Shown piece after piece: positions 22,336 through 45,459 of a DNA stretch of 45,459 nucleotides. The translations under genes were made by a program, and so were the position numbers. The notes beneath the pieces were generated by a model. The model was not told the origin of the DNA. It searched no databases and saw nothing but the letters and a program-made list of their open reading frames with translations. The stretch's first letter is position 1, and each line of letters opens with the position of its first letter. Source of the DNA: a bacterium (lineage in GTDB: Bacteria; Lindowbacteria; 2-12-FULL-62-27); NCBI GenBank assembly GCA_016202645.1, contig JACQOF010000146.1:64620-110078 (forward strand). Direction: 5' to 3'.

Positions 22336-22352
22336 AAGAGGAAGAATGACCC
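22326..22352. repeat. Right terminal inverted repeat carrying an outward start codon
   Basis: 27 bp, exact reverse complement of 21307-21333. Read outward it holds AGAGGA, a good ribosome site, five or six bases before an ATG (22346-22348) that opens the peptidase gene. Confidence 0.92.
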
Positions 22353-24430
22353 CTTTTTCTTTTTCTTTGTTGATTTTGAATTTGGTTCTCGGCGCTCCGG
22401 GGGATTATGGCTGGCCGCTTGGGAAGGAGTCGGCTGTGAGCGGGGTATTTGGGGAATACAGGGAGGGGCATTTTCACAGCGGGGTTGATTTTTCGACAGA
22501 CGGGGTTTCTGGCTGGCCGGTGTATGCGGTGGCGGACGGATTCGTGTACCGAATCGCGGACAGCCTGACGGGGTTTGGGAAGGCGGTTTATCTCAAGCAT
22601 CCGGACGGGAATATCACGGTCTACGCGCATCTGGACGGGTACACGGGGAAGATTGCGGAGGAAGTCCGGCGGCGCCGGACGGGGATGGCGTTTCGGGAAC
22701 GGCTGAATGTGTATCTTGAACCCGGGGTGATCCCGGTGCGGAAGGGAGATCAGATCGGCCTGAGCGGCGAGAGCGGCGCGGGGCTTCCGCATCTACATTT
22801 TGAGGTCCGGCGAAACGAGGAGACGCCGGTCCAGCCGTTTGAGTTTTTGCCGCGTCCCAAGGACGACCAACCGCCCCAGATTCTATCCGTGCGGTTTGAT
22901 CCGGCATCGGAAGACGCCGTGATCGACGGACATCACCGGGCCGCGGTCGTGAACTTGATTCTTGCCGGTGGCGGTTACGCCGCGACCGAGACGCCGCATC
23001 TTGCGGGGCGCTTTCATGTGTCGGTAACGGCGCGGGACTATACGGTGAACGGCGGCGTCTACCGGCTTTCCCCGTCGCGTCTGGGATTTTCCATCGACGG
23101 GGAAAAATGGAAGACCATCGACTTTGATCGGGTCAGCTACGCGCAGGGTGAGAACAAGAAAATCGGACTCTTGTATGACCCAACGGCCAGTTCCGCCGGG
23201 ATGGGGCTTTACACCTACAGGCTCTACACAAATTTTCCGCGGCCGTCGCCCCCGGCCTCTGATCCGACCGCCGCCCTGGATGCCGGCAAAATGGGAGAGG
23301 GCCTTCACGAGCTGGGACTCCGCGTCGAGGATGTGAACGGCAACCACGCGTCCGGTCGTTTGATTTTCCGTGTTGGCCGCCCGCAGCCGTCGGCCGGCAT
23401 CCCGGCCGATTCGCCGGGTCTGCGTCTTTCGCCTGAAGGAACTCAGTTGGCCGTCAGGTATGCCGCCCCGCCCCCTTCGCGGATTGAAGGAAATCCCGTC
23501 CTGGGATTTCCCGAGTCTGGAGCTTCGGGGACAGGACATCCCTGTCCGCCGGGGGATGATGCGCGGCGGGCAGAACTGGTCATTCGCGGAAAGACGTGGG
23601 CTCTGATGGGAGTCCATGCCGTGTTTTCCGGCTGGCTGCCGTTTTCGGAACTGCCTGCCGGCCGGGTCGAAGGCGCGGTGCGGACGGAAGACGCGGCCGG
23701 CAACGCGCTCGAGAGGAAATTCACGCTCGCGTTTGTTCGGCCGCCCTCCAAAAAAGATACTTCGATTCTCGTCAGCGCCGACGGCCGCCTGGCTTGCGAG
23801 ATCGGCCCGGCCTCGCCGTACCGCCTCGATGGAATTTCCTACTACGTCCTTCCCGCGGATGTCCCGACGCCTCCTGAGGAATCGTCGCTGAATCTCCGGC
23901 AGATGTATGGCCTTTATCCGGCGGACGAAGTCTTCTCCGCGCCGGTGAGGCTGAGCGTTGCCGTGCCGGATTCCTATCAGCCGCAAAGATCTCCATCGGG
24001 CGTTTATCCCCGCCTCGGGATCTATCGGCACGATCCGCTCCGCCGCCGGTGGATTTTCGTCGACTCGGCCCCGGACACGGGCGTCCTCGCCGCCGACTAC
24101 CGGTTCGCCACCCCCATCGATCGCTTCGGGGTTTACGGACTCTTCGATGACGCCGCGCCGCCCGCCGTCGAGCATCCCCGCCGCCGGTCGTACAAGCGGG
24201 GCGAAGAGATGCTGTGGAAAGCATCCGACCGGGGATCGGGAATTTCGGAGGAGGAGAGCCGTCTGACGGTTGACGGCGAGAATTACGACGATTGGTATTA
24301 TGACGCGGACCGCGGATGGTTCCGGGTGTCGCTGGGGAATGTCCCGCGGGGCAAACATACATTCAGTCTGACGGTCAAAGACCGCGTCGGCAACAGTTCG
24401 GGGCGATCGGGGGTGTTTGAAATTAGATAG
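22346..24430 (+). CDS. M23-family peptidase with long C-terminal beta-rich extension
   Basis: 694-residue exported protein. A hydrophobic N-terminus (FSFSLLILNLVLGA) may act as a signal peptide, although it lacks basic residues. Residues about 25-165 form an M23/LytM metallopeptidase: H44-S-G-V-D48, AHLDG around H95, and H149-L-H151 in LPHLHFEVR, so the zinc site is complete. M23 enzymes cut peptidoglycan cross-links. The remaining 530 residues look like beta-sandwich repeats (DVNGNHASGRLIF; DAAGNALERKF; DRVGNSSGRSG). The first two codons after the ATG come from the right transposon end, so the original N-terminus was probably replaced. Convergent with metF, 18 bases apart. Confidence 0.87.
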   Translation: MTPFSFSLLILNLVLGAPGDYGWPLGKESAVSGVFGEYREGHFHSGVDFSTDGVSGWPVYAVADGFVYRIADSLTGFGKAVYLKHPDGNITVYAHLDGYTGKIAEEVRRRRTGMAFRERLNVYLEPGVIPVRKGDQIGLSGESGAGLPHLHFEVRRNEETPVQPFEFLPRPKDDQPPQILSVRFDPASEDAVIDGHHRAAVVNLILAGGGYAATETPHLAGRFHVSVTARDYTVNGGVYRLSPSRLGFSIDGEKWKTIDFDRVSYAQGENKKIGLLYDPTASSAGMGLYTYRLYTNFPRPSPPASDPTAALDAGKMGEGLHELGLRVEDVNGNHASGRLIFRVGRPQPSAGIPADSPGLRLSPEGTQLAVRYAAPPPSRIEGNPVLGFPESGASGTGHPCPPGDDARRAELVIRGKTWALMGVHAVFSGWLPFSELPAGRVEGAVRTEDAAGNALERKFTLAFVRPPSKKDTSILVSADGRLACEIGPASPYRLDGISYYVLPADVPTPPEESSLNLRQMYGLYPADEVFSAPVRLSVAVPDSYQPQRSPSGVYPRLGIYRHDPLRRRWIFVDSAPDTGVLAADYRFATPIDRFGVYGLFDDAAPPAVEHPRRRSYKRGEEMLWKASDRGSGISEEESRLTVDGENYDDWYYDADRGWFRVSLGNVPRGKHTFSLTVKDRVGNSSGRSGVFEIR

Positions 24431-24448
24431 GGGGATGGTGTTTGCGGT

Positions 24449-25312
24449 CTAGATGTTCAGCCTTGAAAAAATCGCGCGGGTCGAGGGGGATTTGTTGAGG
24501 GTGTAGAAGTGGATTCCCGGGGCGCCTCGATCCAGGAGGTCCTGGCACTGGCGGACGGCGTGGTCGACGCCGTACGTTTGGACGGCCGATTCGTCTTCGT
24601 GGATCGCATCCAGCCGGTCCGTCATTTCCTTCGGCAGGTGCGCGCCGCACATCTGCGTGAATTTTCGGATCTGGGCGTAGTTGGTGACGGGCATGATGCC
24701 GGGGATGATGGGAACACGGATGCCGATGTCCCGCGCGCGTTTTACGAAATCGAAGTAATCGCGGTTGTCGAAGAAAAGCTGGGTGATCACGAACGACGCT
24801 CCCGCGTCGACCTTGGTTTTCAAATGCGCCAGGTCCTCGTCCCGGCTCCCGCACTCCACGTGTCCCTCCGGATACCCGGCGACGCCGATCGTGAAATCGT
24901 GATCTCCACGGATCGCGCTCACGAGTTCGCTTGCGTACCGGAACCCGTCCGCGTGCGCCACAAATTGCGTCTGCCCCTGGGGCGGATCGCCCCGGAGGGC
25001 CAGGACATTTTCGATGCCTTCGGTTTTCAAGTGGTCCAGCACGGAAGAAATTTCCCCGCGCGCCGCGCCGACGCAGGTGAGGTGCGCCATCGCCTCGATA
25101 CCGATTTCCTTTTTGATGCGGGAGACGATCTCGACGGTCTTGTGGCGCGTACTGCCGCCGGCCCCGTACGTGACCGAAACAAACGACGGCCGATGTTGAC
25201 GGAGGACTTCCACCGTTTCATACAACTTCCGTTCGCCCTCCGGGGTCTTGGGCGGAAAAAATTCAAACGAAAACGTCCGCCCGTCCCGGGCCAGCATGTC
25301 CGAAATGCGCAT
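24449..25312 (-). CDS. metF: Methylenetetrahydrofolate reductase
   Basis: 287-residue flavoenzyme that reduces 5,10-methylene-THF to 5-methyl-THF for methionine synthesis or the acetyl-CoA pathway. It opens with the catalytic-Glu motif FSFEFFPPKT and has VSVTYGAGGSTR, MAHLTCVG, NVLALRGDPP, GVAGYPEGH and FFDNRDYFDF. Length matches MetF (about 290-300). It starts four bases after the rnhA stop and is probably last in a ppdK-rnhA-metF unit. I see no MetV or MetH partner here. Confidence 0.96.
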   Translation of the reverse strand: MRISDMLARDGRTFSFEFFPPKTPEGERKLYETVEVLRQHRPSFVSVTYGAGGSTRHKTVEIVSRIKKEIGIEAMAHLTCVGAARGEISSVLDHLKTEGIENVLALRGDPPQGQTQFVAHADGFRYASELVSAIRGDHDFTIGVAGYPEGHVECGSRDEDLAHLKTKVDAGASFVITQLFFDNRDYFDFVKRARDIGIRVPIIPGIMPVTNYAQIRKFTQMCGAHLPKEMTDRLDAIHEDESAVQTYGVDHAVRQCQDLLDRGAPGIHFYTLNKSPSTRAIFSRLNI

Positions 25313-25316
25313 CAGG

Positions 25317-26048
25317 TCAGCTCATAGCACGAAGGCCCCATTTTTCCAACGTGTAATCGAATTCTTTCCGGGTCTTGCATTTCTTGTACCGCGCGCCCCG
25401 GCGGCCTTCGACGTCGGTCTTGCAGTCGTCCCAGGTTCTATAAGCGGTCAGGCTCCCGCCCCGGAACACGATGTAGGCCGGAAAGACAAGGTGTGCAGGC
25501 GCGTTCACATCCCGCAGTTTTTTCCGGGCCGGAGCATCGGCCGTGCCGGAATGAAGACTCACGCGCGCTCCCTTCGAAAACGCCTGCGCGATATCGTTGG
25601 CGCGTTCATTCTCTGGGTCGCCCGCGTGGGCCTCGACCTTGATGTATCGGACGCGGCGTTTCCCGGAAAGATCGTCGAGGGTTTCCCACAGGTCCCGGTT
25701 TTCGACCGGTTTTTTGGCCGCCGTCAAAAATCCGTTCCGCCGCCAGGTGTGAATGTACTGCGTGATGCCGTTCACGACGTAAGCGCTGTCGCTGTGGACG
25801 TCGGCCCCGGCGTTTTCAGGAACGCGCCGGAGGGCCTCGATGACGGCGGTAAGTTCCATCCGGTTGTTCGTGGAATGCGCTTCGAACCCGCCGATCTCCT
25901 CCCGCCGTCCCTCCGAAATCAGAACCGCGCCCCAGCCTGACGGGCCGGGGTTTCCGGAGGTGGCGCCGTCCGTGTAAATTTGAAAGTATCGGAGTGTCGG
26001 AGTATCGGGGTATCGGTGAGTCGGAGCATTGCCGTTACACCGATACAC
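25317..26048 (-). CDS. rnhA: Ribonuclease HI with a C-terminal viroplasmin-like domain
   Basis: 243 residues. The RNase H domain has the catalytic set: D in IYTDGATSGNPGPSGWG, E in NNRMELTAVIEAL, D in VHSDSAYVVNGI, H in VEAHAGDPENERAND and the following D. It removes RNA from RNA-DNA hybrids. The C-terminal 45 residues (AYIVFRGGSLTAYRTWDDCK, then YKKCKTRKEFDYTLEKWG) resemble the caulimovirus viroplasmin/RNase H1 hybrid-binding domain, normally at the N-terminus. The only in-frame start is GTG 26046-26048, inside TATCGG repeats, so about 20 residues (YRCNGNAPTHRYPDTPTLR) are repeat-encoded. Confidence 0.9.
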   Translation of the reverse strand: MYRCNGNAPTHRYPDTPTLRYFQIYTDGATSGNPGPSGWGAVLISEGRREEIGGFEAHSTNNRMELTAVIEALRRVPENAGADVHSDSAYVVNGITQYIHTWRRNGFLTAAKKPVENRDLWETLDDLSGKRRVRYIKVEAHAGDPENERANDIAQAFSKGARVSLHSGTADAPARKKLRDVNAPAHLVFPAYIVFRGGSLTAYRTWDDCKTDVEGRRGARYKKCKTRKEFDYTLEKWGLRAMS

Positions 26049-26071
26049 CGATACCCCGATACTCCGATACT
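25985..26071. repeat. TATCGGNG tandem/inverted repeat block
   Basis: Degenerate 8-base units (agtatcgg, agtgtcgg, agtatcgg, ggtatcgg) on the left are mirrored by ccgatact-type units on the right around a short centre (gagcattgccgttac). The block fills the gap between ppdK and rnhA and supplies the rnhA start and first codons. Confidence 0.8.
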
Positions 26072-26077
26072 CTCAGA

Positions 26078-28780
26078 TCAAGAGAGGGCGGCGTGCGCCG
26101 CGGCCAGGCGGGCGATCGGGACGCGGTAGGCGCTGCAGCTGACGTAGTTCAGGCCGGCGCGGAAACAGAACGCGACAGACGCCGGGTCTCCGCCCTGCTC
26201 GCCGCAGATGCCGACCTTGAGGTCCTTCTTCGTGGCGCGGCCTTTCTTGACCGACATCTCGATGAGCTGTCCGATGCCGTCCTGGTCGATGGTCTGGAAG
26301 GGGTCCGCGGCCAGGAGTTTTTTGCCCAGATAGTCCTGCAGAAATCCGCCGATATCGTCTCGGCTGAATCCGAATCCCATCTGGGTGAGGTCGTTTGTGC
26401 CGAACGAAAAGAAATCGGACTCGGCCGCCATGCGGTCCGCGAGGAGCGCGGCGCGGGGGATCTCGATCATCGTGCCGTACAAATACGGGATCGCCTTGAT
26501 GCCTTTTGCCGCGCAGACCTCCGCGTAGACCTTCCGGCAGATCGCTTTCTGATGCGTGAGTTCCTTCACGTCGCACGTCACCGGCACCATGATTTCGGGA
26601 TGGCATTTCCTGCCGGCCTGGATCAGTTCCGCCGCGGCTTCGAAAATGGCGCGGACCTGCATTTCCGATATCTCCGGGTACGTGACGCCGAGCCGCACGC
26701 CCCGGTGGCCCATCATGGGGTTCGACTCGTGGAGTTCCTCGCCGCGCTTCTGGACGTCCGCCGGCTGGATGCCGAGTGCGTCCGCGAGCGCTTTCTGTTT
26801 CCCGGGGTCCTGCGGGACGAACTCGTGGAGAGGCGGATCGAGAAGGCGGATCGTCACGGGCAGGCCTTCCATAGCCTCCAGGGTCGCCTTGATGTCCTTC
26901 TTGACATGCGCGAAAAGTTCCGACAGGGCTTTCCGCCGTTCCGTTTCGTCCGCGCTCAGGATCATCTTGCGCAGTAAAAACAGCGGCTCGTCGCTCCCCT
27001 TGCCGTAAAACATGTGTTCGGTCCGAAAGAGGCCAATGCCTTCCGCGCCGTAACTGCGGGCTACACGCGCGTCCTCCGGCGTGTCGGCGTTCGCGCGCAC
27101 GCCAAGCGTGCGGAATTCATCGGCCATTTTCATGAACTGCTGGAACCTGGGATTTTCCGTGGCGTCGATCATGTTGAGCCTGCCGGCGTAGACAAGCCCC
27201 CGCGTGCCGTTCAGCGTGACGACGTCGCCCTCCTTGAACACCCGTCCGTCGGCTTTCATCTCCCGGGCGTGCGCGTCGGCGTGAATGTCGCCGGCGCCTA
27301 CGATGCAGCACTTGCCCCAGCCGCGCGCGACAAGCGCCGCATGGCTGGTCATGCCTCCGCGGGCCGTGAGAATGCCGACGGCGGCGCGCATGCCTTCAAC
27401 GTCCTCGGGGTTGGTTTCCTCGCGCACGAGAATGACCGTTTTGCCCTGCCGGGCCCACTCGACCGCCGTGGCCGCCGAGAAGACGATCTGGCCGGCCGCG
27501 CCGCCGGGTCCCGCCGGGAGGCCCCTGCCGATCGGTTTGGCGTTTTTTTCCGCGGCGGGATCGATGATGGGATGGAGCAGTTCATCGAGCTGATGGGGCT
27601 CGACCCGAAGGACGGCCGTTTTCCGGTCGATGAGTTTTTCCCTCAACATGTCCATCGCGATGTTGAGCGCCGCCGTTCCCGTGCGTTTGCCGCTGCGGGT
27701 TTGAAGCATGTAGAGTTTGCCTTCCTGGATGGTGAACTCGAGGTCCTGCATGTCGCGGTAGTGTTTTTCAAGTTTCCGCCGGATGCCGTCGAGTTCCTTG
27801 TAAAGTTTCGGCATCGCCTTCTCGAGAGACTGGAGTCGCCGGTTCTGGTCGTTCTTGGTCGCCTCGTTGATCGGAGAAGGCGTGCGGATGCCGGCGACGA
27901 CGTCCTCGCCCTGCGCGTTGGCCAGCCACTCGCCGTAGAATTGGGAATCGCCCGTGGCCGGGTTCCGCGTAAACGCCACGCCGGTCGCGGACGTGTCGCC
28001 CATGTTGCCGAACACCATCGCCTGAACGTTCGTGGCGGTCCCCCACTCGTGCGGGATGCCTTCGATGTTCCGGTACGCGATGGCGCGCCGCCCGTTCCAG
28101 CTCTTGAACACGGCGCCGATCCCGCCCCAAAGCTGTTCGACCGCGTCGTCCGGGAAGGCCTTGCCGAGGATATCCCGGATGCGCTTCTTGTACGCGTCGC
28201 ACAGTCCCTTCAAATCGGCCACGGTCAAATCCGTGTCCTGCCGGTAATTCTTTTTCTTCTTGAGATCCTCCAAGATGCGGTCCAGTTGCTGGCGGATTCC
28301 CCTGCCCTCAGCCGGCTCGACGTCCTCGGCTTTCTCCATGACCACGTCCGAGTACATCGTGATGAGCCGCCGGTAGGCGTCGTAAACAAACCGCTCATTT
28401 TTCGTTTTGGCGATGAGACCCGGGATGGTGGACGAACAGAGCCCGACGTTGAGAACCGTTTCCATCATGCCGGGCATTGATTTTCTGGCGCCGGATCGGC
28501 AGGAAACGAGCAGGGGATTTTTCGGATCGCCAAATCCCATCCCCATCCCTTTTTCCACCCGCTTCATGGCCTTCGCGACTTCGGCCTTCAAACTGGCCGG
28601 AAACTTCCCGCCGCGGGCGAAATATTCCGTGCAACAGTCGGTCGAGATCGTAAATCCGGCCGGGACCGGAACTCCGATGTTCACCATCTCGGCAAGGTTG
28701 GCGCCTTTTCCGCCCAGCAGGTTTTTCATCTTGGCCGATCCCTCGGCTTTCCCGCCTCCAAAATAATAAACGTATCGCAT
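26078..28780 (-). CDS. ppdK: Pyruvate, phosphate dikinase
   Basis: 900-residue cytoplasmic enzyme interconverting pyruvate, ATP and Pi with phosphoenolpyruvate, AMP and PPi. The ATP-grasp N-terminus has YFGGGKAEGS, LLGGKGANLAEM and VSCRSGARKSMPGMM. The phospho-histidine domain has GGMTSHAALVARGWGK (H480). The C-terminal TIM barrel has GIGLFRTEHMF and FGTNDLTQMGFGFSRDD. I start at ATG 28780 because AAAGGAG lies seven bases upstream; a TTG at 28816 would add 12 unrelated residues. It probably serves gluconeogenesis or PPi-based glycolysis. Confidence 0.96.
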   Translation of the reverse strand: MRYVYYFGGGKAEGSAKMKNLLGGKGANLAEMVNIGVPVPAGFTISTDCCTEYFARGGKFPASLKAEVAKAMKRVEKGMGMGFGDPKNPLLVSCRSGARKSMPGMMETVLNVGLCSSTIPGLIAKTKNERFVYDAYRRLITMYSDVVMEKAEDVEPAEGRGIRQQLDRILEDLKKKKNYRQDTDLTVADLKGLCDAYKKRIRDILGKAFPDDAVEQLWGGIGAVFKSWNGRRAIAYRNIEGIPHEWGTATNVQAMVFGNMGDTSATGVAFTRNPATGDSQFYGEWLANAQGEDVVAGIRTPSPINEATKNDQNRRLQSLEKAMPKLYKELDGIRRKLEKHYRDMQDLEFTIQEGKLYMLQTRSGKRTGTAALNIAMDMLREKLIDRKTAVLRVEPHQLDELLHPIIDPAAEKNAKPIGRGLPAGPGGAAGQIVFSAATAVEWARQGKTVILVREETNPEDVEGMRAAVGILTARGGMTSHAALVARGWGKCCIVGAGDIHADAHAREMKADGRVFKEGDVVTLNGTRGLVYAGRLNMIDATENPRFQQFMKMADEFRTLGVRANADTPEDARVARSYGAEGIGLFRTEHMFYGKGSDEPLFLLRKMILSADETERRKALSELFAHVKKDIKATLEAMEGLPVTIRLLDPPLHEFVPQDPGKQKALADALGIQPADVQKRGEELHESNPMMGHRGVRLGVTYPEISEMQVRAIFEAAAELIQAGRKCHPEIMVPVTCDVKELTHQKAICRKVYAEVCAAKGIKAIPYLYGTMIEIPRAALLADRMAAESDFFSFGTNDLTQMGFGFSRDDIGGFLQDYLGKKLLAADPFQTIDQDGIGQLIEMSVKKGRATKKDLKVGICGEQGGDPASVAFCFRAGLNYVSCSAYRVPIARLAAAHAALS

Positions 28781-28823
28781 GTGTGGACTCCTTTGACAGT
28801 TGTAATGATCAAACAATCCCGGG

Positions 28824-28852
28824 ATGCTAAGTCAGTGTGGGCGGATCGTCAA
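28824..28852 (-). promoter_or_regulatory. Promoter of ppdK
   Basis: On the minus strand TTGACG (28847-28852) and TAGCAT (28824-28829) are 17 bases apart. The predicted start, about 28817, gives a 37-base leader ending in the ppdK ribosome site. Confidence 0.65.
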
Positions 28853-28890
28853 GGCGAGATTCGGCGCGAGAAAAACCGCCGCCGGGCAAA

Positions 28891-28925
28891 TTTCTTAACT
28901 TTAGGACAATCTGTAAGTTAAGAAA
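28891..28925. promoter_or_regulatory. 11-bp inverted repeat, possible operator
   Basis: tttcttaactt (28891-28901) and aagttaagaaa (28915-28925) are perfect reverse complements with a 13-base spacer, between the divergent ppdK and small-RNA promoters. The size suits a dimeric regulator's site, but the regulator is unknown. Confidence 0.5.
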
Positions 28926-28940
28926 AATGGCCTTCCGCTG

Positions 28941-28962
28941 GATTGTGACCAAGAACACAATC
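28941..28962. promoter_or_regulatory. 7-bp inverted repeat, possible operator
   Basis: gattgtg (28941-28947) and cacaatc (28956-28962) flank eight bases, ending eight bases before the -35 box of the candidate small-RNA promoter. Confidence 0.4.
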
Positions 28963-28969
28963 ATTCTTC

Positions 28970-28997
28970 TTGCCATTTGAGGAAACTGCGGTAGGAT
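28970..28997 (+). promoter_or_regulatory. Promoter of the candidate small RNA
   Basis: TTGCCA (28970-28975) and TAGGAT (28992-28997), 16 bases apart. The predicted start is near 29004. Confidence 0.5.
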
Positions 28998-29003
28998 AGG
29001 GTC

Positions 29004-29104
29004 AAGTTACGGGTGGAGTGAGCAACGTCCGACACAAAAAAATACCAACCCTCTAAGCGCCCAGGGGCCTGGTTCCAGACAACGGAATTGGGCCCCATTT
29101 TTTT
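29004..29104 (+). ncRNA. Candidate small RNA with its own promoter and terminator
   Basis: About 100 bases with no plausible reading frame lie between a promoter-like sequence and a strong intrinsic terminator. Its middle part (gtccgacaca, within 29028-29038) is perfectly complementary to tgtgtcggac, which occurs once in each unit of the tandem repeat directly downstream. I do not recognise it as 6S, SRP, RNase P or tmRNA. The existence of the transcript is inferred from its signals. Confidence 0.45.
29064..29104 (+). terminator. Intrinsic terminator
   Basis: GGGGCC (29064-29069) pairs with GGCCCC (29091-29096) and TTCC (29073-29076) with GGAA (29084-29087) around a seven-base loop, followed by A and seven Ts (29098-29104). 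Confidence 0.8.
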
Positions 29105-29110
29105 GGTCAG

Positions 29111-29291
29111 TTGAGGCAACAGGGATTATCTGGCCGTGAGGATCCCTGTTGCCTGTGTCGGACTGTTTTGCCGTCCTTGGCAAAACTTTGGTTGAGGCAA
29201 CAGGGATTAACTGGCCGTGAGGATCCCTGTTGCTTGTGTCGGACTGTTTTGCCATCCCTGGCAAAACTTTGGTTGAGGCAACAGGGATTAT
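29111..29291 (+). repeat. 81-bp tandem repeat with two hairpins per unit
   Basis: Two full units (29111-29191 and 29192-29272) and a 19-base partial third (29273-29291), nearly identical. Each has a 12-bp hairpin (ggcaacagggat with atccctgttgcc; the outermost pair is a mismatch in unit 2) and an 8-bp hairpin (gttttgcc with ggcaaaac, loops of six). There are no variable spacers, so it is not a CRISPR array. The minus strand is open through the repeats only because 81 is divisible by three; I do not call it coding. Confidence 0.9.
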
Positions 29292-29310
29292 CCATCCATG
29301 GATAAAAAAA

Positions 29311-29432
29311 ACGATGCCGGCGCCCTGTCGGGCCGAAGCGGGAGGTGGCGTCGTCTGCTTTTCGAATCCTTCGCGATCCGATAAAGCGGCCTTCGGTCTC
29401 CGACTTCGCGCCTAGCAGGTCGCAGGCATCGT
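29311..29432. other. Structured non-coding segment A
   Basis: An 8-bp stem acgatgcc/ggcatcgt closes a 122-base segment containing gccctgtcgggc and other short stems. No convincing frame. It may be a structured RNA or remnant DNA; I recognise no family. Confidence 0.35.
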
Positions 29433-29463
29433 GTCAGTCTGATGCGTCCGGGCCGTTGAAGGG

Positions 29464-29533
29464 GTTGTGTTCCCGCGCGTCAAGGGGGGGAGACGCGAAA
29501 GAACGCTGGCCGTCGGTACAGTCCGAACACAAC
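29464..29533. other. Structured non-coding segment B
   Basis: A perfect 9-bp stem gttgtgttc (29464-29472)/gaacacaac (29525-29533) encloses a 6-bp hairpin cgcgtc (29476-29481)/gacgcg (29492-29497) with a G-rich loop. The 70-base cloverleaf-like fold matches no family I know. Confidence 0.4.
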
Positions 29534-29561
29534 TCTGATATGGAATTGTTCGAATAATGGT

Positions 29562-29780
29562 CTAGTTCGTTTTTCCAACTCCCCGCTGAAGTTTATACTC
29601 GTGCTTGACGCGCACACTCGAAACGCCTCGCTCCCGCAGTCGTTCGATCTTGGTCTCGTCCAGCGTGATTTCAGAATTCAGGAGTCGATTGCCATTTCGA
29701 TCAAGAACCGGTTCCGCCAGGACCATCCCGGGCCTGAGTGCCTGCAGGTAAATGGTTTCTCTTCCTTGAAGCGAGTACAT
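29562..29780 (-). CDS. Stand-alone HD-GYP-associated N-terminal-type domain
   Basis: 72-residue protein consisting almost entirely of the small domain that usually precedes HD-GYP enzymes: LQALRPGMVLAEPVLDRNGN, then a segment ending in ERLRERGVSSVRV. I start at ATG 29780 because AAGGAGG lies about eight bases upstream; a start at 29870 would add 30 residues without support. A c-di-GMP or adaptor role is only an analogy. It has a GC-typical coding region beside an AT-rich island. Confidence 0.7.
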   Translation of the reverse strand: MYSLQGRETIYLQALRPGMVLAEPVLDRNGNRLLNSEITLDETKIERLRERGVSSVRVKHEYKLQRGVGKTN

Positions 29781-29870
29781 GAGCTGTGCCTCCTTCCCTA
29801 ATCGGTCTCTAAGAAAAAAATTTAACCTTGTCATTTCTCGTGACGTCTTCATGTCAAATATGTAAAGCAA

Positions 29871-29898
29871 ATTATATACCGAATAATAAAACAGTCAG
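29871..29898 (-). promoter_or_regulatory. Probable promoter of the small domain gene
   Basis: On the minus strand CTGACT (29893-29898) and TATAAT (29871-29876) are 16 bases apart, in AT-rich DNA about 90 bases before the ATG. An extra TTGACA (29851-29856) without a good -10 box lies further in. Confidence 0.4.
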
Positions 29899-30062
29899 AT
29901 GAAATTATATAACTATTAGTAATACTACATGTTAAATATATTATCAGAATTTTATATTTTATTAGTATGTGTAGAGAAAAGATCATACTAAGGCAATATT
30001 TACCCATTATATGTTGAATAAAACATCGTTTTCTATTAACAGGGTGCTGAAAGACCCACTAA

Positions 30063-30154
30063 TTAGCCGCAAAGGTCACGGAGAAGATAAGCCCTGTTTT
30101 TGTAAGTTTCTGATTTACAGACAATTTTTAATTCTCCGCGACCTCTGTGGCCAA
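30063..30154. repeat. Imperfect inverted repeat of the GCCGCAAAGGTC type
   Basis: 23-base arms (30063-30085 and 30132-30154) match at about 18 positions, separated by 46 AT-rich bases. Confidence 0.7.
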
Positions 30155-30260
30155 TTTGACTCTATTAAATCTGAAAGTAAGAAAGTAGGCACTCCTCCAT
30201 ATATTATATATACGCGTCTGGAGGGCATGGCCACATTGGTGTAGTTTAAGGACTGACCCC

Positions 30261-30287
30261 AACTCAACTAACTCAACTAACTCAACT
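30261..30287. repeat. Three 9-bp direct repeats
   Basis: aactcaact three times without interruption, just before the second C/G-rich palindrome. Confidence 0.85.
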
Positions 30288-30330
30288 ATACCCCCCATCC
30301 GCCTTCCCCCTCAAGGGGGGAAGAGGTTAG
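30288..30330. repeat. CCCCTCAAGGGGG palindromic repeat, copy 2
   Basis: Hairpin cttccccctcaaggggggaag with the flank acccccca; inverted relative to the copy at 7634-7683. It lies upstream of ilvE. I see no convincing promoter between it and the ilvE start. Confidence 0.7.
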
Positions 30331-30447
30331 ATACCCCCCTCCACAGACCGGGTCACCACCCTTGAACTTTTGCCGTGCGCAAGACACACTTGCCGCCTTT
30401 ATTTCGGGAGTGGGGATCCGCGATAACGAAACGGAAGGGAACGGGCG

Positions 30448-38400: not shown

Positions 38401-40195
38401 GAAAGTGGAAGGATCCATGCTGGAGGAAATCATGCGGATGCGCATCCGCATCTGGCATCGGCGCGGGGACGCCGACAAGGTCCTCACGCTCGCCAAATCC
38501 CACCGCGGGGCCTACGGGCCGAACGTCGAAGTGACGCTGGCGGCGGCCGAATCGGCCATCCGGCTCGGGCGGGCCCAGGAGGCGCTCGACGCGATGGAGG
38601 GGTTTGACAGCCGGGAGGTCGACACGCACGACCGGGCGTTCATGGATTTTTACCGCGCGGAAGCCCTCCATAAACTCGGCCGGGACGGCGCGGTCGAACT
38701 CTACCGGCGGCTGGCCGATTTCGGCGACACCGAAATCCGCCTCTCCTCCCGGTATCGCTACGGCATGTTTTTTCTGGGCCGCCGGGAATATGCGCCGGCC
38801 CGGGAGATGTTCGTTTCCGTGATCTCGGATCCGGCCGCGCCGCTGATGAGCTTTTTTCAGGAGTCGATCCTCTCGGCGCTTGGGGCGGCGAAGGAAGCGA
38901 ATGAACCGGAGCAGACCCGGAAAATATACGCGGCCTTCAAGGACCGGATCTCGGCCGAATCGAACCGCATCGCGTCGGCGGAATACAACCTGTGGGCGAA
39001 TCTCGCGATCAAGGACAACGCCAAATCCCAGGCGGCCATCCAGGAACTTCTGGCCCTCCATCTCGACCCCCGCCGACGCGCGGAAATTCTGATGGTGTCC
39101 GCCCAGCTTCACGAGGCGGCGGAGGACTACGCCGGCGCCGACGCAATTTACGGCGGCGTCATGGACAACCCGGATGCGCCCGAGGAGATCCGGCGGAAAG
39201 CCGAGGCGCGGAAAGTCGAACTGGGTATTTTGCGGGGCGAGACCGGCCGGCCGATCCTCGAGGCGTATCTCGAGGCCGGCCACCGCGGCGAGTGGGCCGG
39301 CCGCGCGGCGGAGTCTCTGCTGGCGGCGGCCGTCGCGGACAAACGCTACGCCGACATCATCCGCACCGTGGACCTCATCCAGAGGAAACTCGATACCGTC
39401 CGGCCCGCGGCGCGGTACGCGTCCGCGCTCGCGCATCTCTCCCTGTCCGATACGGCGGGCGCCCTGGAGGATTTTCGGCGGGTCGTGGCGGAAGGATCCT
39501 CGGAAACATTTTACATCGCCTGGTCGGCCTATCGCCTGGCTCAGGACGAACTTATCCAGAGGCGTATGCCGGAAGCCGGAAATTTTCTGAAGCTGGCGTG
39601 GCGTCATCGCGTCAATCTCGATACGCCCGCCGCCCTCAATACGTACGGCCAGCTTGCCGAAATACTGGTTGAGAGCACCGATTTCGCGGGCATTCAAGCG
39701 CTCGCGGCTGACGCTCCGCCGGAAGGCCTCGGGTCCGAGCCGCATCTTCTCATGGGCCTGGCCGCATGGGCTTCGAATGATAACGCCGCGGCGGTCCGGC
39801 ACCTCAAGGAGGCCGTCACGACAACCGAACGCGTCAGGCCCCGCTATGCGGAGGCGCTCGTGCGCACCGGCGACACCCTGTCGGCGATCGCGGAATATGA
39901 ACGGCTCGCGGAAGGCCAGGGACCCGACGCAGGCCGCGCCCAGCTGACCGCGGCGACCCTCCTGGATTCGATCGGGAAATCCTCGGAGGGACTGATCGCC
40001 TATTACAAGGTCCTCGCCGTCCACGAATCGGATACCCAGTCGGAACTGGGCGCGGAGGCGCTCCTCGGAATCTCCCGGCTCTACGCCAGGCTCGGGGATG
40101 TCCAGAAATCAAAGGATGCCGCCTCCGAACTCATTAAAAAATATCCAAACAGCCGCCCGGCCAAAGAAGCGCAGGCGCTTGCGGGCGGGCCATAG
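35396..40195 (+). CDS. Giant periplasmic TPR-repeat protein (1599 residues)
   Basis: Exported scaffold made almost wholly of tetratricopeptide repeats. TTG 35396 overlaps the end of clpC by eight bases (frame ttg-gtt-aaa) and opens a clear signal peptide (KFSARAALCLLAAALLLSAA, cleavage after PAAA). Repeats run from YLYKKGEYDLAAKTFEMIL to AKDAASELIKKYPNSRPAKE near the end, many with the YPxS/FPxS turn typical of YbgF/BamD-like TPRs (KFPGDERTDEVLYWYGECRY). No catalytic motif is visible. Its place before ExbB/ExbD/TonB suggests a periplasmic scaffold for that energised system. The eight-base overlap implies co-expression with clpC. Confidence 0.85.
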
Positions 40196-40223
40196 TTCAA
40201 TCAAACTGGAGGAGATGCCAATC

Positions 40224-40592
40224 ATGAAAACGGGGATTTGGATTTTGTGTTTGACGGTGCTGGGACTGGGAATGCTGACGGCGGGATTCTGCGCGACCGC
40301 GTCCGCCGCGGAGCGGACGGAAGAGGCAACCGTGCTGGGCAAGGACCGGTCGAAGCAGGCCGGGGTCGTGCCTTCGGACACGCGCGCGGCGGAAGTCGAC
40401 TCCAAGCTGAAACAGGAGGAGACGCCGTCCGGCCTGAAATCGGGCGCGCCGGGCGTTCGGACTTCGCAGAAAATGGAAAAACCGAAAATGGCCGAGCCGG
40501 AGCGCAAGAAGCCGGAGGGCCGGAAGGGATTCGGCGGGAATATCTGGATATGGATTCTGGTCATCGGGGGCATTGCCGCCGCGGCCGGATAA
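40224..40592 (+). CDS. Small exported protein with C-terminal membrane segment
   Basis: 122 residues: signal peptide (WILCLTVLGLGMLTAG, cleavage near SAA), a charged, low-complexity middle rich in Lys, Glu and Pro (EKPKMAEPERKKPEGRKG), and a C-terminal helix (NIWIWILVIGGIAAAAG) ending at the last residues. I start at ATG 40224, nine bases after GGAGGAG; ATG 40215 lies within that site. Not recognised. The position between the TPR protein and exbB suggests an accessory subunit spanning the periplasm. Confidence 0.75.
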   Translation: MKTGIWILCLTVLGLGMLTAGFCATASAAERTEEATVLGKDRSKQAGVVPSDTRAAEVDSKLKQEETPSGLKSGAPGVRTSQKMEKPKMAEPERKKPEGRKGFGGNIWIWILVIGGIAAAAG

Positions 40593-40625
40593 GGGCCGCC
40601 TGACGACTGAAAGGAGTCACGACCT

Positions 40626-41189
40626 ATGGGTGCGATAGTGGATTTGACGGCCAAGGGCGGTTTCATGATGGGGCCGCTCTATTTGACTGCCGTCGTCTGC
40701 CTGTTTTTCATCATCGAGCGGATTCAGGCGCTCTGGAAGTTCCACCAGCGTGAAGCGGCCTTTCTGGCTGACGTCGAGTCGGACGGGCTTGGAGCCGCGG
40801 CCGCGCGCGCCGGGGATTTCGGGCCGGCGCGGGTCATCGCCGGCGGCCGGGGCGTCGACGCGACTCTCGCGGAACTGACGGCCATCCTTGAAAGGGATCT
40901 TGGCAGGTTTTTGCACGGCCTCGCCGCCATCTACAAAGGCGCTCCGCTCATGGGACTGCTCGGGGCGACGCTCGGGATCATCAAGGTCTTCCGGAAACTC
41001 TCGGTGCAGGGCTTGGAACAGATGGAATACTTCGCCGGCGGAATTTCGGAAGTCCTCGTTACAACGGCAACGGGACTGCTGATTGCCATCCCCGCGCTGT
41101 TTTTCACGTTTTACCTGAATGGCCTGGTCGCGCGGAAAATCAGCCAGTACGAGACCCTCTACCTCACGGAAATCGAGAGGGGCCGGTAA
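40626..41189 (+). CDS. exbB: ExbB/TolQ/MotA-family proton channel subunit
   Basis: 187-residue inner-membrane protein with three helices: near YLTAVVCLFFIIERIQAL, around MGLLGATLGIIKVF and at LVTTATGLLIAIPALFF. The last two are the family's conserved pair with GLLGTVxGM- and TAxGLxxAIPA-type motifs. ExbB pentamers surround an ExbD dimer and pass protons. AAAGGAG precedes the ATG. It is shorter than E. coli ExbB (244). TolQ is the alternative, but the TonB gene two places downstream favours ExbB. Confidence 0.92.
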   Translation: MGAIVDLTAKGGFMMGPLYLTAVVCLFFIIERIQALWKFHQREAAFLADVESDGLGAAAARAGDFGPARVIAGGRGVDATLAELTAILERDLGRFLHGLAAIYKGAPLMGLLGATLGIIKVFRKLSVQGLEQMEYFAGGISEVLVTTATGLLIAIPALFFTFYLNGLVARKISQYETLYLTEIERGR

Positions 41190-41191
41190 AC

Positions 41192-41614
41192 ATGGGCGCG
41201 CCGCGCCGCCGCAAGACCCGGCTCCAGCTGACCGATCTCGATTTCGAGATCGTTCCGCTGGTGGACATGATTATTCTTCTGCTGATGTTCGTCGTCGTCA
41301 CCACCTCCTTCCGCGGCCAGCCGGGCATCAAGGTCGACCTGCCGGCTTCCGCTGCGACGCCGGCGGACATACCGCAGTACACCGAGGTGTCCATAGCGGC
41401 GGATGGGAAGATGTATCTCGGCCACGAGGAAATTGAGGACATTTCGGCCCTCGGGGCTGTCCTCCAGGAACGCGCCGCCGCGTCGCCTTCGAAAATCCTT
41501 TTCGTCCGCGCCGACCGCAGCACCCGGCACGGTCTCGTGGTGGCCGTGATCGACGTGGCGAAGCGCGCCGGATTTCTGGAGGCCACGATCGCGACGGTCA
41601 GCGCTCAGGAGTAG
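41192..41614 (+). CDS. exbD: ExbD/TolR-family protein
   Basis: 140-residue partner of ExbB, two bases after its stop codon. A basic N-terminus is followed by one helix carrying the proton-path aspartate D25 (IVPLVDMIILLLMFVVVT) and a periplasmic domain (IKVDLPASAA; RADRSTRHGLVVAVIDVAKR) typical of the family. Confidence 0.93.
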   Translation: MGAPRRRKTRLQLTDLDFEIVPLVDMIILLLMFVVVTTSFRGQPGIKVDLPASAATPADIPQYTEVSIAADGKMYLGHEEIEDISALGAVLQERAAASPSKILFVRADRSTRHGLVVAVIDVAKRAGFLEATIATVSAQE

Positions 41615-41634
41615 CGAGGAAGGGAAAATCTGAT

Positions 41635-42555
41635 ATGACGGCGGCGTTTCAGGACATCCGGGAATCGATCGAGGCTTGGATCCAGGATTATCTTTCCGTC
41701 GAGGAAAACCGCCGGGACGCCCGAAGCGCCGCGGCGTCGATGCTGATGTTCGTCGGCCTGCTCTTTTTTATCGCGCGCGGAAACATCGTGTCCTACATGC
41801 TCATCGAAAATCCCGGCCGCACGCTCACCGTTCGCTTTTCGCCGGCGCCCCAACCTCAGGTCGCCGAACTTGCCCAGACCCGGATCCAGCAGTCCCGGGC
41901 CGCGCCCAGGGCTGTGGAAGTCCCTCCGCCGCCTGAATCCGAACGGCCGCCCAGACTTCAGTCCCTGGCCTCCATGGCCGCCGCCCGGCCCGATTACTTC
42001 GGTAAACATCCCATCCTCCCGCCTCAGCCCGCGGACCGGCCGGTCGTCTCGGACGCGCCGGCGAGGTGGCGCGAGAAACCGACGCCCCAGGAGGCGAAGT
42101 CCGAGCGGCGCGCGTTCGGGTCCGCGTCGGTGGATATGCCGGAAGCGAAAATCGGCACGCCAACCGGGACGGCCGACCCATCCGCGTCGGAAGTTTCTTT
42201 CGACGTTCAAGTCACGCCGGGAACCGATGGAAAAGATTTCATTACCTTGTCCGGCCGCGCCGTGCCATCCTCCGTCGGCCGCCCCGGCGGAAAAGAGATG
42301 TCGTCCCGTCGTCCCATTTTGAAATCGCCTCTGCCGACCGTGCCGGAATGGTTCGAGCGCAAGGGTCTCGACAGTTTCGTGACGCTCCGGATCGTGATCT
42401 CGGCGTCCGGGAAGGTCGAATCGGCCGAAGTCGAAAAGACGAGCGGCTTCAAGGAAATGGACGGGGAGGCGCGCGAGAAGATTCTGCAGTGGGTATTTCA
42501 GCCGACGGGGTTTCGGGAGTCGATGGTGGTGAAGATCAATTATCGCCTCCGGTAA
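41635..42555 (+). CDS. tonB: TonB-type energy transducer
   Basis: 306 residues: a cytoplasmic lead of about 35 residues, one membrane helix (SMLMFVGLLFFIARGNIVSY), a Pro-rich periplasmic linker (RAVEVPPPPESERPPR and onward) and a C-terminal TonB domain (LDSFVTLRIVISASGKVESA; FKEMDGEAREKILQWVFQP). It carries proton-motive force from ExbB/ExbD to an outer-membrane partner. The gene directly downstream encodes an Omp85 protein rather than a TonB-dependent receptor, and I cannot see which protein it contacts. Confidence 0.9.
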   Translation: MTAAFQDIRESIEAWIQDYLSVEENRRDARSAAASMLMFVGLLFFIARGNIVSYMLIENPGRTLTVRFSPAPQPQVAELAQTRIQQSRAAPRAVEVPPPPESERPPRLQSLASMAAARPDYFGKHPILPPQPADRPVVSDAPARWREKPTPQEAKSERRAFGSASVDMPEAKIGTPTGTADPSASEVSFDVQVTPGTDGKDFITLSGRAVPSSVGRPGGKEMSSRRPILKSPLPTVPEWFERKGLDSFVTLRIVISASGKVESAEVEKTSGFKEMDGEAREKILQWVFQPTGFRESMVVKINYRLR

Positions 42556-42559
42556 GATC

Positions 42560-44959
42560 ATGAGTCGCTATTCAGCCCTCTCCGTCATTCCCGCGAACGC
42601 GGGAATCCAGTCTGCTGTGCGATTGATTTGGCTCGCCGCCGCTCTCCTCTGTCTCGCCGCGCCCGCCGCGGCCATCGACGTCTACCGGGTGGATCGGATC
42701 GACTTCGAGGGGAACCGCCAGCACACGTATAACGAACTCCGGCTCTCGGTCCAGTTGCTCGAGGGCGCGGTCCTGACGAAGGAGGCGTTGAAAACGGCCT
42801 CGAGCGAGGACGTTCACCGCCTCTACGCCACCGGATTTTTTTCGGACGTCCGCGTCGACGTGAAATTCGGGCCGGAATCGACGGCGGGCGTTACGTATCT
42901 CTTGACCGAACAGCCCCAGATCGTTGAAGTGGCCTTTACGGGACTCGATAGACTCGACGAGAAGACCCTCAAGGACGTCCTCCCCACCAATTTTTCAGCG
43001 GGGAATTTTCTCAATGAATTTATGCGGAAACGCGCCGAACAGGCGATCCTGGGGCGATATCTCGAGGAGGGATTTTATTTCGCGAAGGTGACGACGGACC
43101 TGGAGACCGTGGAGGAGGACAAGGTCCGGGTGAGGTTCGTCGTGGAGGAAGGGGACAAGCTCAAGGTCGGCCGGTTCGACGTCAAGTTTGACCGGCGGCT
43201 CGGGCCGTTCGAGGGGTGGCGCCGGAAAATGCAGATCAAATGGCACTTCAGCACGGGTCGCGGCGCGGTCTTCTCGAAGGAACTCCTGAACAACGACATC
43301 AAGCGGTTCATCGACATCCTGAAAGAGAAGGGATACCTTCTCGCGGCGATCGAGCCGCGCACGCGGGTGAACGAGAAAAAACGCAGGATGGACGTCGAAC
43401 TCGTCGTCCACCTCGGGCCGCGCCTTCGCGTCGGGCATATCTCCTTTGAGGGATATGATGTCCTCGACGAGAAAACCCTCAGGGCACAGCTCGCGCTCAA
43501 GACTGGGGAGATTTTTGATCTTAAGAAATTTTCCAAAACCCTCGACAACATCCGCGCGGCTTACGAGAAGGAGGGTTACCTCGAGGCCGAGGTGATCCAC
43601 CGGCCGACCATCCTCGAAGAGGCGGCCCGGGTCGATTTTATGGTCAGCATCACCGAGGGGCAGATGATTTACGTCGAGCAGATCGTGATCGAAGGACTCA
43701 CCAAGACCCGCGCCAAGATCGCGCGGCGGGAGATCGTGCAGGAGGAGGGACAGCGGTACGACGGGGAGAAAGTTGACCTGTCGAAACGAAACCTCAACAA
43801 CACCGGGTATTTTGAAAACGTGATCGTCCTGACCGAACGCGGCTCCAAGCCGAACGCGCGGGTCCTTGTCTTTCGGCTCGCGGAGGGCAGGACCGGCACG
43901 CTTCAGCTCGGGATGGGATTTTCCTCCCTCAGCGGATTCGTCGGGTTTACGGCGATTCAGAAAAGAAATTTTGATTTTTTCGACCACCCATTTAAAAAGG
44001 ACAGCCAGAGCCCCTATTTCACCGGCGCCGGGCAGAACATTTCCACGTCAATTGAGATCGGATCCAAACGGACCAACTTCGATGTCTCTTGGACCAACCC
44101 CTGGATCAATGACCGACTGCGGTCCGACCGGCCCAGTCCCAAATTCCCGACGTCCCTCACGACGCGGGTGTTTCGGTCGGGAAACGAGTTCGACGAATAT
44201 AAGGAGGAACGGGCGGGCGGGCAGTTCCGTTTCGGGCGGCGCTTCGGGAATTATCTCTCCGGAACGATCGGGTACCGGCTGGAGGGAGTGTCGCTGTCGG
44301 ATATCACGATCAACGCGCCGACATCGGTTCTCCTCCTCGGCAACCGGGACGACAAGGTCTCCGCGCTCTCGTTTGGGCTCAGCTTCGACCGGACGGACAA
44401 CGTCTTCTGGCCGACGCGGGGATTCCGCGTGTCCCTGGATGACGAGGTCGCGGGTCTCGGCGGCAACGTCAAATTCAACCGGCCGACCTTCGATTTCCGC
44501 GCCTATCGTCCGGGCGGTTGGAAGAACGTGATTGCCTTCCAGTCGCACTTTGTGACGGTGTCCAATCCTTTCAATGATGATCTGCCGCCTGACTACGAGC
44601 GATTTTATCTCGGCGGGCCGAGCACCATCCGCGGATATGACGACCGGGAAATCAACATTCGGAACGCCAAAGGCCAGAGAGAGGGCGGCCGGACGGCGGC
44701 CTACTACCGGCTCGAATACCGGATCCCGGTCGTCGAACAGACCTTCAGCGTCATTCTCTTCAACGACGGCGGATTGGTCAGCGAAAAATCCTACGACTTT
44801 GACGCCGACTTCAAACCCAGCCTCGGCGTCGGCATCCACGTCCAGAGCCCCATGGGCCCCCTCCGGCTCGATTTCGGTTACAGGATGGCGGACACGTACA
44901 AGGGCGCGAACGACAAGGGCCAATTCGAACCGCACTTCTCTTTTGGATCGCAATTCTGA
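42560..44959 (+). CDS. BamA/Omp85-family outer membrane protein
   Basis: 799 residues: signal peptide, five POTRA-like repeats (about 35-430; each with an FxGxxxxxEKTLR-type start such as ISFEGYDVLDEKTLR), then a 16-strand-type barrel with the family's loop-6 motif as STIRGYDD. Omp85 proteins insert outer-membrane proteins or translocate polypeptides. ATG 42560 gives a first 19 residues that include SALSVIPANAGIQ, encoded by a dispersed palindromic repeat. GTG 42617 would start the signal peptide cleanly (RLIWLAAALLCLAAPAAA). BamA, TamA or a specialised paralogue cannot be separated here. Confidence 0.9.
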   Translation: MSRYSALSVIPANAGIQSAVRLIWLAAALLCLAAPAAAIDVYRVDRIDFEGNRQHTYNELRLSVQLLEGAVLTKEALKTASSEDVHRLYATGFFSDVRVDVKFGPESTAGVTYLLTEQPQIVEVAFTGLDRLDEKTLKDVLPTNFSAGNFLNEFMRKRAEQAILGRYLEEGFYFAKVTTDLETVEEDKVRVRFVVEEGDKLKVGRFDVKFDRRLGPFEGWRRKMQIKWHFSTGRGAVFSKELLNNDIKRFIDILKEKGYLLAAIEPRTRVNEKKRRMDVELVVHLGPRLRVGHISFEGYDVLDEKTLRAQLALKTGEIFDLKKFSKTLDNIRAAYEKEGYLEAEVIHRPTILEEAARVDFMVSITEGQMIYVEQIVIEGLTKTRAKIARREIVQEEGQRYDGEKVDLSKRNLNNTGYFENVIVLTERGSKPNARVLVFRLAEGRTGTLQLGMGFSSLSGFVGFTAIQKRNFDFFDHPFKKDSQSPYFTGAGQNISTSIEIGSKRTNFDVSWTNPWINDRLRSDRPSPKFPTSLTTRVFRSGNEFDEYKEERAGGQFRFGRRFGNYLSGTIGYRLEGVSLSDITINAPTSVLLLGNRDDKVSALSFGLSFDRTDNVFWPTRGFRVSLDDEVAGLGGNVKFNRPTFDFRAYRPGGWKNVIAFQSHFVTVSNPFNDDLPPDYERFYLGGPSTIRGYDDREINIRNAKGQREGGRTAAYYRLEYRIPVVEQTFSVILFNDGGLVSEKSYDFDADFKPSLGVGIHVQSPMGPLRLDFGYRMADTYKGANDKGQFEPHFSFGSQF
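42568..42610. repeat. Palindromic VIPANAGIQ repeat inside the Omp85 gene
   Basis: 43 bases matching 7710-7752 at 42 positions. It lies eight bases after the ATG and is read through in frame. Confidence 0.92.
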
Positions 44960-44968
44960 AGTGCGGGC

Positions 44969-45459
44969 GTGAAATCCGCAATCCGCACTCTGCAATCCGC
45001 AATCCCACTGGCCTTCGTCCTGTGCGCCGGCATCGGCCGGCGGCTCCGGCCGCTCACCCTGCATTATCCGAAAGCGCTTCTGCCCCTGTGGGGGAGGCCC
45101 ATGGTGTTTTACGTCCTCGACGCGCTCCGCCGGGCGGGCGTCCGGAGATTTCTCGTGAATCTCCACGCGCATCCCGAGATCGTACAGAGAGCGCTGGCGG
45201 ACTACGGAAAGCGTCATGGCGTGAGGTTTACGTTCCTGCTTGAAAGAAAATTGCTTGACACCGGCGGCGCGCTGAGAAACGCCCGCCGGATCCTGACGGA
45301 ACCCTTCTGGCTGGTCAACTGCGATTTTTTCCCGGAGGGATTCTCCTTTCAAAAAATGGAACGGGCCCACCGCCGCTCCGGCGCGATCGTGACGCTGGCC
45401 GTCCGCCCCAAATCTCCGGGTGAACCGTACAACCCTGTTGGCGTGGACCGGCGGGGCCG
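44969..45459 (+). CDS. Sugar-phosphate nucleotidyltransferase, MurU-like (cut by window end)
   Basis: First 163 residues of an NTP-transferase: AFVLCAGIGRRLRPLT (nucleotide-binding loop), YPKALLPLWGRPMVFYVLD, FLVNLHAHPE, LLDTGGALRNAR and FWLVNCDFF. These fit the N-acetylmuramate-1-phosphate uridylyltransferase (MurU)/HddC group more than GlmU, but the missing half prevents a firm call. The only in-frame start is GTG 44969, within AATCCGC repeats, so residues 2-14 (KSAIRTLQSAIPL) are repeat-encoded. No clear ribosome site. Confidence 0.82.
   Translation, partial: MKSAIRTLQSAIPLAFVLCAGIGRRLRPLTLHYPKALLPLWGRPMVFYVLDALRRAGVRRFLVNLHAHPEIVQRALADYGKRHGVRFTFLLERKLLDTGGALRNARRILTEPFWLVNCDFFPEGFSFQKMERAHRRSGAIVTLAVRPKSPGEPYNPVGVDRRG
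44972..45006. repeat. AATCCGC repeat cluster
   Basis: aaatccgcaatccgc, then ctctgcaatccgcaatcc: four aatccgc-type units, a common dispersed repeat. It supplies the start of the last gene. Confidence 0.8.

What the first reader, a model, noticed from the sequence alone, without database searches (positions are those of the whole stretch)
22346..45006. Four genes start inside dispersed repeats
In 45 kb, four unrelated genes take their start codon or first codons from repeat DNA: the M23 peptidase from a transposon terminal repeat (22346), rnhA from TATCGG repeats (26048), the Omp85 gene from a VIPANAGIQ palindrome (42560) and a nucleotidyltransferase from AATCCGC repeats (44969). The repeats and frames are seen directly. 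That repeats act as portable translation starts in this genome is inference.
Basis: partly seen in the sequence, partly recalled or inferred. Interest (0 to 1): 0.68.

Follow-up and report, generated by a model that had tools for sequence, protein, structure and literature searches.

The report
Repeat DNA read as protein N-termini
In this uncultured Lindowbacteria-family genome, short palindromic DNA repeats sit at gene boundaries and are translated; the repeats seldom supply the start codon, but one octamer family appears to build the export signal of about eleven secreted proteins and another element is spliced in frame into dozens of genes.

Summary
In two of the four genes the start codon lies inside a repeat: the M23 ATG, with its Shine-Dalgarno, is in a 27-nt transposon end, and the rnhA GTG is in an octamer hairpin. 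The Omp85 ATG is one base outside its element and the nucleotidyltransferase GTG abuts its array; there only the next codons are repeat DNA. Portable starts are not supported as a general rule. In 1.28 Mb of the same genome, repeats cover 14 gene starts and 17 stops. The rnhA GTG is buried in a -66 kcal/mol stem. The family most often translated near N-termini (GGGAGAAA...TTTCTCCC hairpins) never holds a start codon. Its arms are read as the basic and hydrophobic parts of signal peptides in about 11 exported proteins; three tested orthologues have unrelated signal peptides. Because the unit is 8 nt and the element palindromic, any frame and either orientation gives the same basic-then-hydrophobic order. 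A separate ~86-nt palindrome is in frame in 33 gene hits (45 copies), including valyl-tRNA synthetase, as in Rickettsia palindromic elements. Known kind (RPE, RU-2), new variant. Translation and export are inferred, not shown.

The parts
21307..21333 (-). left inverted end of the Y1-transposase element (GGGTCATTCTTCCTCTTTTACACTTTC)
   Evidence: the repeat finder; third copy of the end at L127 (~772, minus)
21358..22335 (+). IS200/REP-associated type (Y1_Tnp) transposase gene
   Evidence: Pfam PF01797 1.5e-8
22326..22352 (+). right inverted end of the element; carries GAGG and the ATG of the M23 gene
22346..24430 (+). M23 peptidase gene; ATG inside the transposon end
   Evidence: Pfam PF01551 1.3e-17; orthologues in G001 and G002
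23468..23552 (+). in-frame copy of the ~86-nt palindromic in-gene element inside the M23 gene (PPPSRIEGNPVLGFPESGASGTGHPCPPG)
   Evidence: lies in a region that does not align in the G001/G002 orthologues
25317..26048 (-). rnhA (RNase H, C-terminal Cauli_VI-type domain); only ATG/GTG/TTG start is GTG in the hairpin
   Evidence: PF00075 1.5e-37
25981..26075 (-). TATCGGAG octamer hairpin between ppdK and rnhA, holding the GTG
   Evidence: MFE -66.1 kcal/mol, z -11.3; 61 matches in own genome
42564..42621 (+). 58-nt VIPANAGIQ palindromic element, read as Omp85 codons 2 to 21
   Evidence: consensus; left border
42560..44959 (+). Omp85 gene; ATG one base before the element, alternative GTG at 42617
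   Evidence: PF01103 2.8e-51; G001 orthologue starts MKLLPLGGGRALLGCVLSILTFLSPAAA
44972..45006 (+). AATCCGC heptamer array, read as the first codons of the nucleotidyltransferase
44969..45459 (+). nucleotidyltransferase gene (runs off the window); GTG abuts the array, CTG at 45008 is an alternative
   Evidence: PF00483 3.3e-15; orthologue

Best explanation
The genome is littered with short palindromic elements: octamer- and heptamer-armed hairpins, a 58-nt REP-like palindrome and an ~86-nt in-gene palindrome. They lie at gene junctions and, for the last one, inside genes. Because their arms are stop-free and their repeat period is not a multiple of three, they can be read through in several frames. 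At a junction where the start codon overlaps the preceding stop codon, an element behind the start becomes the N-terminus. Signal peptides tolerate this best. GGGAGAAA...TTTCTCCC hairpins yield a basic stretch (GRKGEREK) then a hydrophobic stretch (LPFSLSPF) in any frame and orientation, so they replaced the signal peptides of about eleven exported proteins. The four window genes are ordinary cases of the same boundary invasion; only M23 clearly takes its start codon from a repeat. Shown: positions, frames, orthologue comparison, counts. Inferred: the insertion process, translation and export.
For: Eleven genes in nine protein families (SurA-like, S55 peptidase, three alginate-export porins, subtilase, HlyD, TPR and others) have octamer arms in the signal-peptide region. 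Arms are always ordered GGGAGAAA then TTTCTCCC (18 of 18 inverted pairs). Eight of the eleven starts overlap the upstream stop by 1 or 4 nt, against 14.8% of genes (p 2.5e-5). Orthologues of three of them in G001/G002 have unrelated signal peptides at the same place, and strong homology begins at or near the cleavage site. Period-7/8 arrays: 2.2 per 10 kb in the first 120 nt of genes, 0.34 in interiors, 0.66 in the last 120 nt (28 vs 8 at the two ends, p 0.001). In-gene element: 45 copies, 33 in-frame gene hits (one copy lies in two overlapping gene calls), four of six frames used. G001 valyl-tRNA synthetase lacks residues 621-646 and the flanking matches are contiguous. Repeats cover 14 starts and 17 stops.
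Against: There is no expression, proteomic or export data, and no dedicated signal-peptide predictor was available. LPFSLSPF is only mildly hydrophobic (Kyte-Doolittle 1.05) and has prolines. The crude signal-peptide score rejected two of the eleven, and for the others it is circular because the arms themselves supply the hydrophobic stretch. Gene calls are home-made longest-ORF calls, and the sample was partly chosen by repeat content. Only two same-family genomes were available. Some of the eleven may share one event (two porins have near-identical leaders).
Confidence: 0.68

Rival explanations
1. The repeats are portable translation-initiation signals: elements carry SD and/or start codons and confer translation on the gene behind them.
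For: M23: SD and ATG both lie in the transposon end. The VIP-type palindrome has an ATG in GCGGGAATGAC that is a called or possible start in five genes. The rnhA frame has no other ATG/GTG/TTG.
Against: 14 starts vs 17 stops covered; no start codon in 67 CTCCCTTT arms; rnhA GTG inside a -66 kcal/mol stem; only one of four transposon ends is at a gene start; Omp85 and nucleotidyltransferase start codons lie outside the repeat.
Confidence: 0.12
2. Start-site misannotation: true starts are non-canonical (CTG or ATT) or downstream, and the repeats are untranslated 5' leader.
For: rnhA of G001 and G002 also lack ATG/GTG/TTG, and both have CTG exactly at the conserved start; the nucleotidyltransferase has CTG at the domain start; Omp85 has GTG 42617 giving a good signal peptide.
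Against: It cannot apply to the octamer signal-peptide genes, where the next start lies at or beyond the mature protein (or leaves no leader) and the called start overlaps the upstream stop.
Confidence: 0.3
3. The octamer leaders are drift of ordinary low-complexity signal peptides, not inserted elements.
For: Signal peptides are low-complexity, and 4.4% of all octamers give a hydrophobic strand and a basic strand.
Against: The period is 8 nt, not a multiple of 3; identical hairpins occur between genes and at C-termini; arms are complementary with fixed order; no such arrays in 135 kb of other genera.
Confidence: 0.06

Closest known systems
Rickettsia palindromic elements (RPE; Ogata et al. 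2000, described in PMC2229807)
   Same: Palindromic elements of about 100-150 nt inserted in frame in many protein genes as well as between genes; the in-gene element here behaves alike.
   Different: Different element (sequences not compared), shorter (~86 nt), four frames used, non-rickettsial genome; the octamer hairpins concentrate in signal peptides instead of being scattered through proteins.
Enterobacterial RU-2/YPAL MITE in Y. pestis YPO1552 (Delihas 2007, PMC2759123)
   Different: One gene there, about eleven here; there one frame of a 168-bp element, here tandem octamer arms that give the same basic-then-hydrophobic layout in every frame and both orientations.
Pneumococcal BOX elements (PMC3049150)
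   Same: Modular repeat element at gene ends and in operons; overlaps annotated genes, mostly supplying stop codons (36 of 58); boxC can hold a start codon.
   Different: No signal-peptide role found in the passages read.
REP/RAYT systems (Y1 transposase with inverted flanking repeats)
   Same: Y1-type transposase gene flanked by inverted copies of a short repeat.
   Different: Only four matches to the end in 1.28 Mb; the abundant repeats here are not shown to depend on it.

Membership tests
RPE-like in-frame palindromic elements (for the in-gene element) | palindromic, forms a stem-loop | tested here: met
   MFE -37.6 kcal/mol, z -2.59
RPE-like in-frame palindromic elements (for the in-gene element) | inserted in frame in otherwise conserved protein genes and absent from orthologues | tested here: met
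   33 in-frame gene hits for 45 copies; ValS insertion absent in G001, flanks contiguous
RPE-like in-frame palindromic elements (for the in-gene element) | sequence kinship with the Rickettsia elements | not tested
   no RPE sequences compared; independent origin assumed
Portable translation starts | element carries the start codon of the downstream gene more often than expected | tested here: not met
   14 starts vs 17 stops covered (p 0.72); 14 vs 6 without the CTCCCTTT family
Sec signal peptides (octamer leaders) | basic n-region, hydrophobic h-region, A-x-A-like cleavage site, followed by an exported mature protein | tested here: inconclusive
   layout and cleavage-like sites seen; protein families of exported kinds; crude score accepted 9 of 11; no dedicated predictor, no experiment
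REP/RAYT element (Y1 transposase) | HUH Y1 transposase with flanking inverted repeat copies | tested here: met
   PF01797 match and 27-nt inverted ends
REP/RAYT element (Y1 transposase) | many dispersed copies of the same repeat mobilised by the transposase | tested here: not met
   4 matches to the end sequence in 1.28 Mb

The most novel reading that the evidence does not exclude
The GGGAGAAA...TTTCTCCC hairpins are frame- and orientation-independent signal-peptide modules: a spreading non-coding-like element whose insertion behind any start codon creates a working export signal, and which selection has retained at secreted proteins.
Probability: 0.35. Interest if true: 0.8.

Novelty: new variant of a known kind. 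Interest (0 to 1): 0.58.

Why it matters
It gives a concrete route by which selfish repeat DNA becomes a protein part. A palindrome built of units whose length is not a multiple of three needs no reading frame and no orientation to encode a charged-then-hydrophobic leader, so signal peptides can be replaced wholesale. It also adds a Lindowbacteria-family genome to the very few lineages with in-frame palindromic inserts in housekeeping genes, and it warns that N-termini in such genomes are easily misannotated.

Tried and rejected
Portable starts as a genome rule: rejected on the start/stop counts and on the rnhA hairpin. The octamer family is not a family-wide trait: no match in G001 and one weak match in G002; those genomes show other, sparser arrays. 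A direct literature search for VIPAKAGIQ gave nothing, and no paper on Lindowbacteria repeats was found.

Full report
Source. The window is G000:C124:64620-110078, a 2.9-Mb genome in 146 contigs, 82% complete. The only named relative found is Candidatus Lindowbacteria bacterium RIFCSPLOWO2_12_FULL_62_27. Its contig MFPR01000028 matches the length (392036) of G001:C28, so I take it to be G001. G001 and G002 are the only two same-family genomes in the set searched.

The four sites. M23: the ATG at 22346 is in the right end of a Y1-transposase element whose 27-nt ends are perfect inverted copies; GAGG lies 4 nt upstream inside the same end. In G001 and G002 the M23 gene follows the ntrC-like gene within a few tens of bases. 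In this genome 2.7 kb with a small ORF, a HAD hydrolase and the transposase separate the two. The element therefore most likely replaced the gene's own start (inference). rnhA: GTG 26048 is the only standard start before the domain, but it is in the stem of a -66.1 kcal/mol octamer hairpin. The orthologues in G001 and G002 also lack ATG/GTG/TTG and both have CTG at the expected place; the G001 5' end lies in a different dispersed repeat (CCGGCCGGCGTCGGAGACGCCGGCAC...) and the G002 one in a heptamer-like CGAGTAA array (the G002 array was read by eye). Omp85: the 58-nt element begins about 42564, one base after the ATG; either it lengthens the n-region of the signal peptide or the gene starts at GTG 42617 in the element's last bases. 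Nucleotidyltransferase: the heptamers begin directly after GTG 44969, and CTG 45008 is possible; the G001 N-terminus has different CCCTTGAA-like repeats.

Genome-wide test. I sampled 1.28 Mb of the same genome (later 1.54 Mb) and called 983 (1172) genes with a codon-usage caller. Repeats cover 14 gene starts and 17 stops. Without the CTCCCTTT family the figures are 14 and 6, where longest-ORF calling inflates the first. The genome does use Shine-Dalgarno sites moderately (24% against 11% in a control interval). So start codons are not what the repeats mainly provide.

What the repeats do provide. Tandem arrays of period 7 or 8 occur at 4.0 per 10 kb between genes, 2.2 in the first 120 nt of genes, 0.34 in interiors and 0.66 in the last 120 nt; none in 135 kb from 27 other genera. 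The 5' excess over 3' is 28 to 8 (p 0.001). The octamer family GGGAGAAA/TTTCTCCC forms hairpins with fixed arm order, 18 of 18 inverted pairs. In eleven genes the first arm is read as GRKGEREKGRK and/or the second as LPFSLSPFLP, followed in several by sites such as AHAQ, AQAQ, SQAE, ANAQ and AHAD. The proteins are mostly of exported kinds: SurA-like, S55 peptidase, alginate-export porins, subtilase, HlyD, TPR and surface domains. Eight of the eleven starts overlap the upstream stop by 1 or 4 nt against 14.8% of genes (p 2.5e-5), so these start codons do not come from the repeat, and translational coupling may help ribosomes through folds of about -70 to -80 kcal/mol (the coupling role is inference). 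In G001 and G002 the SurA-like, S55 and TPR orthologues carry other leaders (for example MSRRILSMIFILCLLPLRPSHA and MGLAVCLVLTAFLIVSHA), and strong homology begins at or near the cleavage site.

Why it works in any frame. Three octamers are 24 nt, eight codons, so every frame of an array gives the same cyclic peptide: LPFSLSPF on one strand, GRKGEREK on the other. The element is palindromic, so either orientation gives the basic arm first. This holds for the arms; loops can contain stops in some frames, and the CTCCCTAT variant unit has a stop on its other strand. About 4.4% of octamers have such a strand pair, so the unit is not unique in this.

In-gene element. A consensus of ~86 nt (MFE -37.6, z -2.6) has 45 copies of at least 40 nt in the larger sample. 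There are 33 hits in frame inside gene calls (one copy lies in two overlapping calls) and 12 copies lie between genes; four of six frames are used. One copy is in the window's M23 gene (23468-23552). In valyl-tRNA synthetase, G001 lacks residues 621-646 and the two flanking matches are contiguous on its contig. This is the behaviour of Rickettsia palindromic elements (PMC2229807).

Known precedent. Delihas (PMC2759123) described one Yersinia gene whose signal peptide is partly a RU-2 element while its homologues have unrelated leaders. BOX elements overlap gene ends in pneumococcus (PMC3049150). I found no report of a tandem-octamer hairpin serving as many signal peptides; the library searched is only the open part of the literature.

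Limits. There are no expression data, the genome is a draft in 146 contigs and read as a metagenome assembly, the sample was partly chosen by repeat content, gene calls and the signal-peptide score are home-made, and few relatives exist.

Noticed in passing
L085:4194-7040 (residues ~621-650); window 23468-23552: An ~86-nt palindromic element is inserted in frame inside many genes, including valyl-tRNA synthetase and the window's M23 gene; 45 copies in the 1.54-Mb sample.
   Followed up: yes
L014, L081, L086, L102, L109, L114, L116, L127, L185, L186: Octamer hairpins GGGAGAAA...TTTCTCCC form the signal-peptide region of about eleven exported proteins.
   Followed up: yes
L074 and L070 (rnhA of G001 and G002): rnhA has no ATG/GTG/TTG start at any likely position in these two genera; both have CTG at the conserved start, which suggests weak non-AUG initiation.
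   Followed up: partly
L085:14265-14816: A type IV prepilin-like leader (MRLRIVDCGLRIEYARG-FTLIELL) is coded by reversed AATCCGC heptamers.
   Followed up: partly
L106:14300, L116:17590, L130:15372: Octamer arms are read as PLSLSPSLPFSL at the same place in a recurring surface-protein domain ending in YPNP.
   Followed up: no
L095:3427, L095:5973, L111:9411, L024:2537: The basic arm GRKGEREKGR also ends several proteins as a C-terminal tail with its stop codon nearby.
   Followed up: no
L193:5442-7292; L211:1667-2803: Hairpins of period-10 units also appear to code signal peptides, here (a secretin-domain protein) and in G002.
   Followed up: no
window 19617-22345: About 2.7 kb including a small ORF, a HAD hydrolase and a Y1 transposase lies between the ntrC-like and M23 genes, which are adjacent in two related genera.
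   Followed up: partly
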